DNA from: Clostridia bacterium
Lineage (GTDB): Bacteria; Bacillota_A; Clostridia; Christensenellales; Aristaeellaceae
DNA: 62,879 bases
NCBI GenBank assembly: GCA_025997215.1
Contig: BNUH01000008.1
Span: forward strand, 1-62,879
Reading direction: 5' to 3'
This document shows positions 30,817 to 41,129 of this stretch, piece after piece. A program made the translations under genes and the position numbers. The notes below the pieces were generated by a model. It did not search any database, was not told the DNA's origin, and saw only the letters and a list, made by a program, of their open reading frames with translations. Position 1 is the first letter of the stretch. The number at the start of each line of letters is the position of its first letter.

Positions 30817-31725
30817 TCAACCATGCGAGAACGTTTCAGTCACGGCGACGCGCCGGAAGCCCAGGTCAATGCCAATATCCTTTTCGCCGGGAACGCCTAT
30901 GGCGTCGGCGCGGCAATGCTGGCAGTGGCGGAACACGGTGATAAACTCCTCGGCGGAACGGCGCGCGGCGTCGATCTGGACGCAGGTGGGAATCGGCTCA
31001 TCAGATAGGAGCGCGTTGGGTATCAGCGGGATGATGTTGTATAAAGATGCGCCCGCTTCCGCGACTTTTCGGGCGATTCCTGCAATATGCTCGCCGTTAA
31101 TGCTGGGAACCAGCACTGTATTCACCTTGACGAGTATGCCTTTGTCAACAGCCAAGCGTATCCCGTTAAGCTGATTCGTTATCAACTGTTCCATCGCATC
31201 GACGCCTTTAAGCGCCACGCCGTCCAGCACTATACCGTCGCATAATTTTGTCAGCCGTACAGGATCAATATCGTTGACGGTGACGGTGAGCGTTTCTACG
31301 CCAATATCTGCCAGTTCATCGACATGTTCCGGCAATGTCAGGCCATTTGTCGATAAACATAGTATCAGCTCCGGAAATTCGCGCCGTATCCGTCTGAAGG
31401 TTTCCAGCGCATAAGGCGACGCGAGCGTATCCCCTGGCCCCGCGATGCCCGCAACGGTTAGGTTATCCGATGCGCGCAACGCCGCGCGGACACGTTCTAT
31501 GGCTTCCGCTGGGGTGATTATGCCGGACGTGACGCCCGGCCTATCCTCCCAACCGTTTATCGCGTGGCTGCAAAATCTGCAGCGGATGTTGCATCCGGGA
31601 CTGACGGGCAGGTGAATGCGGCCCTTAGCGTTCTTACGTCCGATTGAAAAGCATGGATGCAGCTCCGAGATTCGCTTTCCAGACTTAGCCGCCCATAGTG
31701 GATTGGCTGTTGCGCAATTGGTCAT
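30817..31725 (-). CDS. nifB: NifB-like radical SAM cofactor-maturation protein
   Basis: A 302-residue stand-alone NifB core. The radical-SAM motif is CNIRCRFC (Cys45, Cys49, Cys52) inside GRIHLPVSPGCNIRCRFCSH, matching the NifB consensus. ELHPCFS near residue 25 and the C-terminal HCQHCRADAIG (Cys268, Cys271) supply the extra Fe-S ligands specific to NifB, and AGIAGPGDTLA is also family-typical. NifB fuses two 4Fe-4S clusters and inserts a carbide to make the 8Fe-9S-C NifB-co. Its presence implies that the nearby NifDK-like protein holds a NifB-derived cofactor. It starts in an ATGA overlap with the NifX-like gene. Confidence 0.9.
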   Translation of the reverse strand: MTNCATANPLWAAKSGKRISELHPCFSIGRKNAKGRIHLPVSPGCNIRCRFCSHAINGWEDRPGVTSGIITPAEAIERVRAALRASDNLTVAGIAGPGDTLASPYALETFRRIRREFPELILCLSTNGLTLPEHVDELADIGVETLTVTVNDIDPVRLTKLCDGIVLDGVALKGVDAMEQLITNQLNGIRLAVDKGILVKVNTVLVPSINGEHIAGIARKVAEAGASLYNIIPLIPNALLSDEPIPTCVQIDAARRSAEEFITVFRHCQHCRADAIGVPGEKDIGIDLGFRRVAVTETFSHG

Positions 31726-32108
31726 ACGACATTCACCCTCTCACTATTTATTGAATCAGAATGAAATGCCTTGCCGCACTCCTTGACCGCGTCGTCGATG
31801 TAACCGCCGAATTCGAACGCCGCAATACCATGGGATTCCAGCATCGCGGCCGCTCCCGGGCCAATTCTGGATACGATAACGGCATGGCAATCCGATAGTT
31901 GCGTTACGGCATTCTGGAGCGCATCATCAGAATGCCCGCCGACACCGCACGCCGAAGCCACATCCCGGCGTTCGACGAAACGAAACGCCGCGTCTCTTAA
32001 CTTATCAGGCACATCCCACACATCCAGTATCGTCCATGAGGAACAGCGGCCGAAGTGCTGGTTGACGAGCTTGCCGTCGCTCGTTGCGACCGCGATGCGT
32101 ATGCTCAT
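31722..32108 (-). CDS. NifX/NafY-type cofactor carrier
   Basis: The 128-residue protein belongs to the dinitrogenase iron-molybdenum cofactor (NifX, VnfX, C-terminal NifB) family: IRIAVATSDGKLVNQHFGRCSSWTI opens the fold, CGVGGHSDDAL and LSDCHAVIVSRIGPGAAAMLESHGI follow. Such proteins carry NifB-co or a related cluster between NifB and the apo-reductase. Both ends overlap neighbours by 4 bp (ATGA), giving strict translational coupling NifH-NifX-NifB. A second, divergent NifX domain lies at the N-terminus of the product at 37352. Confidence 0.85.
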   Translation of the reverse strand: MSIRIAVATSDGKLVNQHFGRCSSWTILDVWDVPDKLRDAAFRFVERRDVASACGVGGHSDDALQNAVTQLSDCHAVIVSRIGPGAAAMLESHGIAAFEFGGYIDDAVKECGKAFHSDSINSERVNVV

Positions 32109-32992
32109 ATGTTCTGCCCGTCGCTCTCCTGCGCGCCTTGCGAAACAGCGAGCAATTCATCCGCCCAGGATGAAGCCCATTTGCGCAGGTCAGACACCTC
32201 AAGCGGCGCGGGCGTAGTCGACTTCTCATGCGAGGCTATGCGTTCCGCGAGAGCCATGTATCGCTTCGCCTGGTCGGAGTCAGGCGCTGATTGTATGGTC
32301 GTCTGGCCTTTTAGTTCAGACTGTGTAACTGTTACGGACCTTGGTATATATGATAGTATCTGCGTCTTTGTACGCTGGGCAAAGTCGTCGACTATATTCT
32401 TTTGATAGGGCTGGTTGATCGAGTTGGCGATGATGCCGCCCAGCAGCGCGCCGCCGGAATTCGAGTACTTCTGAATGCCCTTGAACAGATTGTTGGCCGC
32501 GTATATCGCCATAAAATCGGCGGATGATACCGTAAATACATGCTCGGCAATGCCTTCGCGGATGGGCATGGCAAAACCGCCGCAGACTACGTCGCCCAGC
32601 ACATCGTACAGCACATAATCCAGATCCAGCTTCTCAAACATGCGCTGCTGTTTGAATAGTTCGACAGCCGTGATGATGCCGCGCCCGGCGCAGCCCACGC
32701 CTGGCTGAGGCCCGCCTGCCTCGACGCAGTAGATGCCGTTGTAACCCTCGAAGATGACATCGGACGCGCTGACGCTCGATTTTTCGCGCAGTGTGTCGAG
32801 CACGGTCGGAATATATTCCCCGCCGCGAAGCGTGTTTGTCGAATCGCTCTTGGGATCGCAGCCAAACTGCATCACCTTAAAGCCCAACTTTGACAGCGCG
32901 GCGGATATGTTCGAGGTAGTGGTCGACTTGCCGATGCCGCCCTTGCCGTAGATGGCGATCTGTTTGATCTTCTTGCCCGTTTCTTTAGCCAT
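32105..32992 (-). CDS. NifH-like nitrogenase reductase (Fe protein) homologue
   Basis: A 295-residue homodimer-forming ATPase. The P-loop GKGGIGKSTTTSNI (16-29), the switch I region MQFGCDPKSDSTNTLRGG, and both 4Fe-4S ligands, Cys101 (GVGCAGRGI) and Cys137 (DVVCGGFAMP), are intact. Arg104 matches the ADP-ribosylated Arg of NifH. It would deliver electrons with ATP hydrolysis to the NifDK-like partner encoded divergently. The C-terminal 40 residues (HEKSTTPAPLEVSDLRKWAS...) do not resemble NifH. It starts 42 bp after the DUF2292 gene. This is a nitrogenase-like (NFL) Fe protein; the subgroup needs a tree. Confidence 0.92.
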   Translation of the reverse strand: MAKETGKKIKQIAIYGKGGIGKSTTTSNISAALSKLGFKVMQFGCDPKSDSTNTLRGGEYIPTVLDTLREKSSVSASDVIFEGYNGIYCVEAGGPQPGVGCAGRGIITAVELFKQQRMFEKLDLDYVLYDVLGDVVCGGFAMPIREGIAEHVFTVSSADFMAIYAANNLFKGIQKYSNSGGALLGGIIANSINQPYQKNIVDDFAQRTKTQILSYIPRSVTVTQSELKGQTTIQSAPDSDQAKRYMALAERIASHEKSTTPAPLEVSDLRKWASSWADELLAVSQGAQESDGQNI

Positions 32993-39975: not shown

Positions 39976-40031
39976 CAAACGCCAAAGGCGTTTGCGATAA
40001 ACCTAAACCCCATTAGAAAGGAAGGGACATC

Positions 40032-41129
40032 ATGAACACCAAGAAACTGATTTCCGCATTACTGGCCGCCGCGCTGCTGTTGAGCTTCTGTTCAATCGCG
40101 CTGACCGAGACGGTCGATCCCATCAACGGCGAAACGCCGTACAAGGTGAAGGTTCTATACGGCACTGGTCTGTGCGGCGTGCCGTTCCACGTAGCCAAGC
40201 AGCTGGGCTTCTTCGAGGCTGAAGGGCTGGTGGAAGGTGTGGATTATGAATTCTTCAAGAGCGATACGGCTCAAAACGAGCTTTTCGCGACCGGGAACCT
40301 GGATGTCGGCAACGCGCTGCTGGCCTCGAAGCTAGCGCCGCTGGACAACGGCCTCGAAGTGAAAACCGTCGCGGGTTTGCACACGGGCTGCATCCAGATC
40401 CTTGGCAGCGTCGAGGGCGCGGTCCAGAGCATTGAGGATCTTCGCGGCAAGAAGATTGGCGTGAGCGCACTCGCATCGTCCGGCCATATCCTAACCCAGC
40501 GCGTTCTGTCGAATGCTGGCATCGGTGTAACAGCGCAGGACGCTGAAGTCGAGTTCCTGGTATTCACATCGGCCGAGCTGCCGCTGGTGCTTCAGAACGG
40601 AGCTGTGGATGCGATCGTTACCGAGGATCCCACCGCTAGCACACTGATTGCGGATGGTGTGGCCGTCAGCCTGTACAACTACGGTGTATCCGAGTATCTG
40701 CATGACGAGTATTGCTGCACGCTGTGGGTCACGGCGGAAGCGTTGGAGAAATATCCCTATCAGATCGGCCGCGTGGTGAACGCGATCCTGAAGGCCAGCG
40801 CCTGGGTAGACGCGAACCGCCATCTAGCCATCGATATCCAGATGGAGAACGGCTGGAATCCAAACGGCGCGGAAGGCAAGCGCGAGTACGCTTACACGGC
40901 GATCGACAACTTCACATATCTGCCGTCGGTCAGCGGCGCGCAAGAGGCGTTAACGCGCAATATCCTGGAGATGCAGGAACTGGGCCTGGTAAAGCCGGAG
41001 ACCGACGCGGCTGCCTTAGCTGAATACGCGTTCTTCGCGCTGCCAAACGTACCCGACACCTACATCGGCCAGGACATCGTGCCGCCGCTGGATCCCTACC
41101 AATTCGTCAGCACGCCAAAGCCGGAGTAA
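40032..41129 (+). CDS. ABC transporter substrate-binding protein (SsuA/NMT1-like)
   Basis: A 365-residue secreted protein with a Sec signal (MNTKKLISALLAAALLLSFC, then SIALTE). The Cys at position 20 is not in a good lipobox (LSFC). The mature part has the NMT1/SsuA pattern: VKVLYGTGLCGVPFHVAKQLGFFEAEGL, NLDVGNALLASKLAPLDNG, DLRGKKIGVSALASSGHIL, AVDAIVTEDPTAS. It has five or more cysteines, unusual in this family. It is the last gene of the NFL operon and should capture the substrate that the NifDK-like enzyme finally reduces. The natural ligand is unknown; sulfonates or thioethers are inferred from neighbours. Confidence 0.88.
   Translation: MNTKKLISALLAAALLLSFCSIALTETVDPINGETPYKVKVLYGTGLCGVPFHVAKQLGFFEAEGLVEGVDYEFFKSDTAQNELFATGNLDVGNALLASKLAPLDNGLEVKTVAGLHTGCIQILGSVEGAVQSIEDLRGKKIGVSALASSGHILTQRVLSNAGIGVTAQDAEVEFLVFTSAELPLVLQNGAVDAIVTEDPTASTLIADGVAVSLYNYGVSEYLHDEYCCTLWVTAEALEKYPYQIGRVVNAILKASAWVDANRHLAIDIQMENGWNPNGAEGKREYAYTAIDNFTYLPSVSGAQEALTRNILEMQELGLVKPETDAAALAEYAFFALPNVPDTYIGQDIVPPLDPYQFVSTPKPE

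What the first reader, a model, noticed from the sequence alone, without database searches (positions are those of the whole stretch)
30817..41129. Divergent nitrogenase-like locus wired to sulfur metabolism and a dedicated importer
Seen: NifH-, NifB-, NifX-, NifK- and NifD-like genes with intact Fe-S ligands, together with DUF2292, cysteine synthase and a SsuABC/NMT1-type transporter, in two divergent, tightly coupled operons. Known: nitrogenase-like methylthio-alkane reductase (MarBHDK of Rhodospirillum rubrum) releases methanethiol from small thioethers for sulfur assimilation. Inference: this locus imports an organosulfur compound, reductively cleaves it with a NifB-cofactor enzyme and feeds sulfide or a thiol to CysK. 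The gene set (CysK coupled to NifD, NifX on the permease, own ABC importer) is not the Mar set I know, so it may be a different NFL system.
Basis: partly seen in the sequence, partly recalled or inferred. Interest (0 to 1): 0.95.

Follow-up and report, generated by a model that had tools for sequence, protein, structure and literature searches.

The report
Nitrogenase-like sulfur-scavenging enzyme operon pair
This piece of a bacterial genome carries genes for a nitrogenase-like enzyme, a NifB-like protein predicted to build its metal cluster, a cysteine synthase and an importer; together they likely strip sulfur from an imported organic compound without oxygen to make cysteine, a job close to, but probably distinct from, that of the two related sulfur enzymes already studied.

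Summary
In detail: two divergent operons, DUF2292-nflH-nflX-nflB and nflK-nflD-cysK-(nifX+permease)-ATPase-SBP, with cluster ligands intact. NflDK is nearest in sequence and fold to methylthio-alkane reductase (Mar) but forms its own clade (100/100), outside NifD, NifE, AnfD and VnfD rows; grouping it with Mar and Mar-like rows is rejected (AU p 0.02). It keeps the P-cluster cysteines and Mar's two cofactor ligands (Cys289, loop His438), lacks Mar's Arg428, and has Val for Trp195 (35 of 35) and Asn for His375 (33 of 35). It also fails published marks of isethionate reductase. cysK directly follows nflD in 22 of 24 loci of the clade, against 4 of 18 and 0 of 31 in neighbouring clades, so it is no accidental neighbour. 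Eight of 18 host genomes show no sulfite reductase or sulfate-activating enzyme of the families searched (seven of the eight are MAGs), which favours sulfide or a thiol over sulfite as product. Best reading: a nitrogenase-cofactor C-S reductase feeding CysK; substrate and activity are inferred. nifK-nifD with cysteine synthase has been mentioned in print; I found no assigned function for this clade. New variant of a known kind.

The parts
30817..31725 (-). nflB: NifB-like radical SAM protein, predicted to build the carbide-centred Fe-S precursor cluster
   Evidence: TIGR01290 256.7 bits; HPC, CxxxCxxC, C123, CxxC in 25 of 25 aligned; no Cys between CxxxCxxC and RPG, as in 23 of 25
31722..32108 (-). 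nflX: NifX-type cofactor-binding domain
   Evidence: PF02579 69.4 bits
32105..32992 (-). nflH: Fe protein (ATP-driven reductase component)
   Evidence: TIGR01287 399.9 bits, over cut-off; P-loop, C101, C137 conserved in 32 of 32 (one row varies at I20)
33035..33202 (-). DUF2292 (YezD-like) small protein
   Evidence: PF10055 50.4 bits; a similar gene in 9 of 24 loci of the clade
33257..33285 (-). promoter-like site of the minus-strand operon, TTGACA-N17-TAGAAT
   Evidence: 11 of 12 matches
33293..33313 (.). candidate shared operator TTCATA-N9-TATGAA between the divergent promoters
   Evidence: 0 mismatches, 0.03 expected in the window; 10 matches with at most 1 mismatch in 23 related loci against 1.95 in shuffles, 8 of the 10 upstream of nflH or DUF2292; other gap lengths gave 0-7 matches (gap 8: 7), so the excess is moderate
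33332..33360 (+). promoter-like site of the plus-strand operon, TTGACA-N17-TATAAT
   Evidence: 12 of 12 matches
33433..33467 (+). terminator-like hairpin plus T run in the leader of nflK (possible attenuator)
   Evidence: not tested in relatives
33481..34815 (+). nflK: beta subunit of the catalytic component (TTG start at 33466 also possible)
   Evidence: PF00148 240 bits; best solved relative MarK 246 bits, next 69.6
34830..36377 (+). nflD: alpha subunit holding the predicted [Fe8S9C]-type cluster (Cys289, His438) and half of the P-cluster (C60, C85, C152)
36374..37339 (+). cysK: cysteine synthase A
   Evidence: TIGR01139 430.3 bits, over cut-off 350.95; next to nflD in 22 of 24 loci
37352..39160 (+). 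NifX domain (about 1-125) in frame with an SsuC/NtrB-type ABC permease; two separate genes in five relatives listed
   Evidence: PF02579 45.8 bits and PF00528 61.9 bits
39154..39975 (+). ABC ATPase of the taurine/sulfonate/nitrate class
   Evidence: SaoA 232.6, taurine 229.1, NtrCD 225.4 bits, all under cut-off
40032..41129 (+). substrate-binding protein, SsuA/NMT1 class, with four cysteines (C48, C120, C228, C229) invariant in 15 aligned relatives
   Evidence: TIGR01728 99.8 bits, under cut-off; alignment of 15; model nearest to HMP- and sulfonate-binding proteins

Best explanation
The locus most likely encodes an anaerobic sulfur-scavenging system in which a nitrogenase-like enzyme (NflHDK) would cut a carbon-sulfur bond of an imported small organosulfur compound and hand the released sulfide to cysteine synthase. 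Predicted steps: the SsuA-type ABC importer brings in the compound; NflB with the NifX-type carriers builds and delivers an [Fe8S9C]-type cluster that sits on Cys289 and His438 of NflD; NflH passes electrons, driven by ATP, over a P-cluster held by three Cys of NflD and three of NflK; the cluster reduces the substrate; CysK joins the sulfur to O-acetylserine. Shown here: the genes, the conserved ligands, the separate clade, the distinctive pocket residues and the conserved nflK-nflD-cysK order. Inferred: substrate class, chemistry and product (sulfide more likely than a thiol, sulfite least likely). The pocket differs from Mar at residues around the cluster, so the substrate is expected to differ too.
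Against: No activity, substrate or expression data for this clade were found. 10 of 18 host genomes do have a NIR_SIR protein, so sulfite release is not excluded in them. Seven of the eight genomes without it are titled MAG and may be incomplete (completeness is not given); CysN and PAPS reductase were not searched. No genome is held for the window itself. Two of 24 loci break the direct adjacency, L002 and L028. The importer varies between loci. The cysteine-bearing SBP resembles SaoX, part of a proposed organometallic system, so its ligand may not be a plain organosulfur compound. The fairer AU test against grouping with Mar is only moderate (p 0.02). Conserved neighbourhood shows linked function, not chemistry.
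Confidence: 0.6

Rival explanations
1. It is a divergent methylthio-alkane reductase that releases methanethiol from small thioethers; CysK would then make S-methylcysteine or serve only nearby sulfide metabolism.
For: Best sequence and fold match is Mar, with shared cluster ligands; an O-acetylhomoserine sulfhydrylase-type gene in 4 of 24 close loci.
Against: 28-30% identity to four MarD proteins. Grouping with Mar and Mar-like rows is rejected, p-AU 0.0219. Mar's Arg428, His194, Trp195 and His375 are replaced, though the paper that names Arg428-His429 calls it only a possible hallmark. cysK, not the sulfhydrylase, is the fixed partner.
Confidence: 0.13
2. It cuts a sulfonate and releases sulfite, as isethionate reductase (Isr) is proposed to do.
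For: Isr also works with an SsuCAB importer (PMC11423573); the SBP here is SsuA-class and its model is near sulfonate-binding proteins.
Against: IsrD keeps one of three P-cluster Cys and lacks the cofactor Cys, and IsrB is nearest to BciD (PMC11423573); here all four Cys are present and NflB is NifB-like. 8 of 18 host genomes show no sulfite reductase. CysK needs sulfide (established knowledge).
Confidence: 0.1
3. It is a nitrogenase of group IV-A that fixes N2, as was proposed for Endomicrobium and Heliophilum NfaDK.
For: NifHDK/NifB/NifX gene set; PMC9147875 (passages) predicts that a group IV relative fixes N2.
Against: NifD's Gln191/His195 columns hold Val/Tyr here and the pocket His is Asn. 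10 of the 12 host genomes searched hold separate genes that group as NifD/NifE (three of these genes checked by model). No further nitrogenase component 1 gene besides NflD and NflK was found in the window (tblastn with NifD, NifK, NifE references).
Confidence: 0.05
4. The importer and enzyme handle a metal- or metalloid-bearing compound (SAO-like), with CysK supplying thiols rather than receiving sulfide.
For: Four invariant Cys in 15 aligned SBPs; all 15 match SaoX, and the ATPase's best model is SaoA.
Confidence: 0.07

Closest known systems
Methylthio-alkane reductase MarBHDK (Rhodospirillum rubrum; PMC12552129)
   Same: NifH-like reductase, NifD/NifK-like catalytic pair, NifB-like maturase, six P-cluster Cys, cluster ligands Cys and loop-I His, best sequence and fold match
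   Different: 28-30% identity; separate clade; K-D gene order; no Arg428; Trp195, His194, His375 replaced; cysK and an importer in the operon
Isethionate reductase IsrBHDK with SsuCAB (Rhodobacter capsulatus; PMC11423573)
   Same: Nitrogenase-like enzyme plus radical SAM protein plus Ssu-type importer used for sulfur assimilation
   Different: IsrD has one P-cluster Cys and no cofactor Cys; IsrB is not close to NifB; product sulfite (as inferred there)
Group IV-A nitrogenase-like genes near type I mlp gene clusters (PMC10418091) and heliobacterial/Endomicrobium Nfl/NfaDK (PMC9147875); passages seen
   Same: Probably the far D-K clade here (an inference from shared MtaA-type neighbours); sulfur genes including CysK near some of them in print
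   Different: MtaA/CmuA-type genes in 28 of 34 far loci against 1 of 24 close loci as grouped; cysK directly after nflD in 0 of 31; W195 and H375 positions differ
nifK-nifD operon with cysteine synthase in the termite-gut spirochete P. corrugata (PMC13067680, passage only)
   Same: K, D and cysteine synthase in one operon, tentatively tied to sulfur
   Different: Only mentioned there; not compared by sequence here
Sao importer of the Sec-assisted organometallic (SAO) system (named in PMC13188914, passages)
   Same: ATPase, permease and SBP are distant matches
   Different: All far below curated cut-offs

Membership tests
Group IV nitrogenase-like enzymes (broad) | NifHDK homologues that group apart from Nif/Anf/Vnf and with Mar-type proteins | tested here: met
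   100/100 branch between NifD/NifE/AnfD/VnfD rows and all others; Bch, Cfb and named Nfa or Isr sequences not included
Methylthio-alkane reductase (Mar) | Grouping with MarD and Mar-like rows | tested here: not met
   Own clade 100/100; one clade with Mar and Mar-like p-AU 0.0219
Methylthio-alkane reductase (Mar) | Arg428-His429 on loop I (proposed hallmark) | tested here: not met
   His429 conserved, Arg428 aligned to a gap in 35 of 35
Methylthio-alkane reductase (Mar) | P-cluster cysteines and cofactor Cys270 | tested here: met
   35 of 35 in NflD; NflK 84-87 of 88
Methylthio-alkane reductase (Mar) | Methanethiol from methylthio-alkanes | not testable with these tools
   needs assay
Isethionate reductase (Isr) | Single P-cluster Cys in D, no cofactor Cys | tested here: not met
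   three plus Cys289 against PMC11423573
Isethionate reductase (Isr) | BciD-like, not NifB-like, maturase | tested here: not met
   TIGR01290 256.7 bits as best family, next 51.7; published description
Nitrogenase (Nif/Anf/Vnf) | Grouping with NifD, AnfD or VnfD rows | tested here: not met
   one AnfD (L101) and one VnfD (L104) row, named
Nitrogenase (Nif/Anf/Vnf) | Gln191 and His195 beside the cofactor (NifD) | tested here: not met
   V189 and Y193
Cysteine synthase A (CysK) | NCBIfam equivalog cut-off | tested here: met
   TIGR01139 430.3 against 350.95 bits
NifB | NCBIfam equivalog cut-off | tested here: not met
   256.7 against 343.65 bits; the model includes a NifX part that is a separate gene here
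SsuABC aliphatic sulfonate importer | Curated cut-offs of SsuA/SsuB/SsuC models | tested here: not met
   SsuA_fam 99.8 of 163.5; SsuC 60.2 of 347; aliphatic-sulfonate ATPase 195.9 of 395

The most novel reading that the evidence does not exclude
A third functional class of nitrogenase-like sulfur enzyme, beside Mar and Isr: an [Fe8S9C]-cluster desulfurase whose altered pocket takes the sulfur of an imported organosulfur compound all the way to hydrogen sulfide, captured on the spot by CysK, so that anaerobes without sulfate or sulfite assimilation can make cysteine from organic sulfur.
Probability: 0.38. Interest if true: 0.82.

Novelty: new variant of a known kind. Interest (0 to 1): 0.64.

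Why it matters
Many group IV nitrogenase-like enzymes have no assigned reaction. This clade comes with strong clues at once: a conserved sulfur-capturing partner, an importer, a NifB-like maturase, intact cluster ligands and a pocket that differs from both nitrogenase and Mar at named residues. Carriers include isolates (Anaerocolumna aminovalerica, Herbinix hemicellulosilytica, Sporomusa), so the question can be tested directly. If right, it adds a route by which anaerobes release sulfide from organic matter, and a further chemistry for the nitrogenase-type cluster.

Tried and rejected
A riboswitch: Rfam search of 28000-44000 at E up to 5 gave two tRNAs and three matches far below their gathering scores. 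A CymR-like box ACCTANTA seen near both promoters: 0 of 49 upstream regions in related loci hold it, dropped. The TTCATA-N9-TATGAA operator held up better, but it was defined on the window and L001, and gap 8 also gave 7 matches. Isr as the identity: divergent pairs in L093, L094 and L096 were looked at; they do not fit the published Isr Cys pattern, so no Isr sequence entered the tree. The Nfa label of the far D-K clade could not be proved by name; one Heliobacterium mobile protein is among the 120 listed relatives of its member L051. The SBP ligand: PDB sequence and fold searches give HMP-, sulfonate-, nitrate- and thiamine-type binders at 13-20% identity, so no ligand can be named. Distances between the SBP cysteines could not be measured (no coordinates given). 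Whole-genome context of the window: none held. nifV was not searched for.

Rows and drops: 156 D-type rows; 11 long or odd rows were dropped before the residue counts, and 9 of the remaining 145 were in no group. The 35 rows of the window's clade are 33 distinct sequences and related to each other, so counts are not independent. The fetched NifD rows are cut at the locus edge before C62, hence the gap there. 47 of 156 rows were used. In one search one of 80 loci (L041) was left out because its D gene is broken; one search counted it. One search kept 80 of 217 relatives, and the protein searches list 120 of 1042, 748 and 783, so all surveys see the best matches only.

The alignment used 15 importer SBPs chosen by me; one search lists all 49 of that cluster, of which the [HYQ]xCCR-type ones lack the HTGC motif and L025 lacks the CC pair too.
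Full report
Observation. The layout is two divergent operons with overlapping genes. On the minus strand: DUF2292, nflH, nflX, nflB. On the plus strand: nflK, nflD, cysK, a NifX domain in frame with an ABC permease, an ATPase and a substrate-binding protein. Between them lie two near-perfect sigma-70-type promoters. The order is K-D in 23 of 24 loci of the window's clade and 20 of 21 of the mid clade, against 1 of 34 in the far clade. 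Besides NflD and NflK the window holds no further nitrogenase component 1 gene that NifD, NifK or NifE references find.

Tree. A FastTree of 156 D-type proteins and a mixture-model IQ-TREE of 47 of them agree on the main groups. NifD, NifE, AnfD and VnfD rows form one side (100/100); one search confirms these labels on five rows (NifE, AnfD and VnfD models over cut-off; two NifD rows, cut at the locus edge, best match NifD at 610 and 625 of 653.55 bits). Mar and Mar-like rows form a second clade (100/100). A third (97/94) holds the window's clade, a mid set that is not one clade, and a far D-K set. The window's clade of 11 sampled rows has 100/100 support. Forcing the window's clade together with Mar and Mar-like rows costs 23 log units (p-AU 0.0219); forcing it with Mar alone, which also tears Mar from Mar-like, costs 222 (p-AU 8.45e-07).

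Active site. Using the Mar numbering in PMC12552129 (passages and sections 8 and 12) and an alignment of 145 proteins: the three P-cluster cysteines (C60, C85, C152), the cofactor cysteine (C289 = MarD C270) and the loop-I histidine (H438 = MarD H429) are present in 35 of 35 rows of the window's clade. Mar's Arg428 aligns to a gap in all 35. Residues that surround the cluster in Mar differ: His194 is Tyr or Phe (34 of 35), Trp195 is Val (35 of 35), His375 is Asn (33 of 35). In the 92 rows of the mid, far, Mar-like, Mar and NifD groups the His375 position is always His and Val is not seen at the Trp195 position; the 9 NifE rows have Lys or Arg and Lys there. So the clade likely holds an [Fe8S9C]-type cluster as Mar does, in a pocket of its own. 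NflK keeps C12, C37, C102 and NflH keeps C101, C137 and the P-loop. NflB keeps the NifB signatures HPC, CxxxCxxC, C123 and CxxC in 25 of 25. In 23 of 25, the window's included, there is no Cys between CxxxCxxC and RPG; L065 has one in the NifB-like stretch CTRKHDC and L014 one at another place.

Partner genes. In 24 loci of the window's clade, cysK follows nflD directly in 22; the exceptions are L002 (the permease follows) and L028 (cysK one gene further). In the mid set it is 4 of 18 with enough sequence, in the far set 0 of 31, though a cysK lies somewhere in 12 of 21 and 15 of 34 of those loci. Far loci instead have a gene cluster typed by one member as MtaA/CmuA-type methyltransferase in 28 of 34, against 1 of 24 close loci as grouped, and corrinoid genes, which fits the type I mlp clusters of PMC10418091 (passages). 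An O-acetylhomoserine sulfhydrylase-type gene lies in 4 of 24 close loci. The importer varies: 10 of 24 loci have the SBP type seen here, several others a two-permease NMT1-type importer.

Product. CysK passes its curated cut-off and makes cysteine from sulfide and O-acetylserine (established knowledge). In 18 host genomes, 10 have a NIR_SIR (sulfite/nitrite reductase) protein and 8 have none; none has a PF01747 ATP sulfurylase; CysD matches occur in 8, over the cut-off in 5. All eight genomes without NIR_SIR also lack a CysD match. They include G013, which holds L001 (81% identity in NflD, the best of the 80 loci fetched), and the isolate Herbinix hemicellulosilytica (G008). In such hosts sulfite would not visibly be useful, so sulfide or a thiol is the likelier product. 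Caveats: seven of the eight are titled MAG and their completeness is not given; other sulfate genes were not searched.

Importer. The binding protein is SsuA-class but below the cut-off. In 15 aligned members C48, C120, C228 and C229 are invariant. Its model (mean pLDDT 87.5) is nearest to formyl-aminopyrimidine (HMP-type) and alkanesulfonate-binding proteins at 18% identity. All 15 also match the SaoX model (best E 4.6e-27); SaoX belongs to a proposed Sec-assisted organometallic system (PMC13188914, passages; the primary paper is not held). The ligand cannot be named.

Regulation. A palindrome TTCATA-N9-TATGAA lies between the two promoters at 33293-33313 (0.03 expected by chance in the window). 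With at most one mismatch it occurs 10 times in 23 related loci (shuffles: mean 1.95, highest of 40 runs 5; other gap lengths 0-7), 8 of the 10 within 183 bases upstream of nflH or the DUF2292 gene, in 7 loci. The motif was defined on the window and L001, so the other 6 loci are the test. This points to a shared regulator, not identified. A terminator-like hairpin in the nflK leader may add attenuation; it was not checked in relatives.

Comparison with the known. Mar: same plan, different clade, pocket, gene set. Isr (PMC11423573; abstract, most of the introduction, results and discussion): same idea of a nitrogenase-like enzyme plus Ssu importer, but IsrD lacks two of three P-cluster Cys and the cofactor Cys, and its radical SAM partner is not close to NifB; the window fails these tests. 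The nifK-nifD-cysteine synthase operon was mentioned for a termite-gut spirochete in PMC13067680 (passage), and CysK near group IV-A genes in a figure legend of PMC10418091. In my searches (mostly listings and abstracts, passages of the papers named) I found no paper that assigns a function to this clade or describes its pocket; most subscription papers are not held.

Verdict. It is a new variant of a known kind: a separate group IV nitrogenase-like clade, tied to cysteine synthase, that likely desulfurises an imported organosulfur compound. The mended test weakens the case against Mar membership from overwhelming to moderate; the odds given already rested mainly on the pocket residues and gene linkage and are unchanged.

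Noticed in passing
33433-33467 +: A strong terminator-like hairpin with a T run lies between the promoter and nflK in a leader that folds better than most shuffles (z -2.74, 4 of 200 as good); a possible attenuator or unknown riboswitch, with no Rfam match.
   Followed up: partly
37352-39160 +: NifX domain and ABC permease form one 602-aa frame; in L004-L007 and L021 they are two genes, so this is either a real fusion or a lost stop or sequencing error.
   Followed up: partly
40032-41129 + and SBPs of L001-L078: The binding proteins next to these nitrogenase-like genes carry conserved cysteines (HTGC and CC motifs) also in many distant D-K loci; a second type keeps only a CC pair in [HYQ]xCCR.
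   Followed up: partly
L093:6523-9136, L094:5441-7975, L096:5635-8521: Pairs of very divergent nitrogenase-like proteins in which one subunit has three P-cluster-like cysteines and the other seems to have none at the usual sites (read by eye); unlike Nif, Mar or the published Isr pattern.
   Followed up: no
L018, L019, L030 and their genomes (G006, G007, G010): Sporomusa and Pelosinus genomes hold 24, 20 and 27 PF00148 matches, i.e. many parallel nitrogenase-like pairs beside true Nif.
   Followed up: no
25600-27970 +: A polar amino-acid ABC importer (SBP, permease, ATPase; ATPase best model cystine TcyN, under cut-off) lies upstream of the locus.
   Followed up: partly
1928-2467 +: A serine O-acetyltransferase-like hexapeptide protein (EpsC/CysE models, under cut-off) lies far upstream; it could supply O-acetylserine but is not linked to the operons.
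   Followed up: no
41302-41577 -: Two tRNA genes directly downstream of the substrate-binding protein gene.
   Followed up: no
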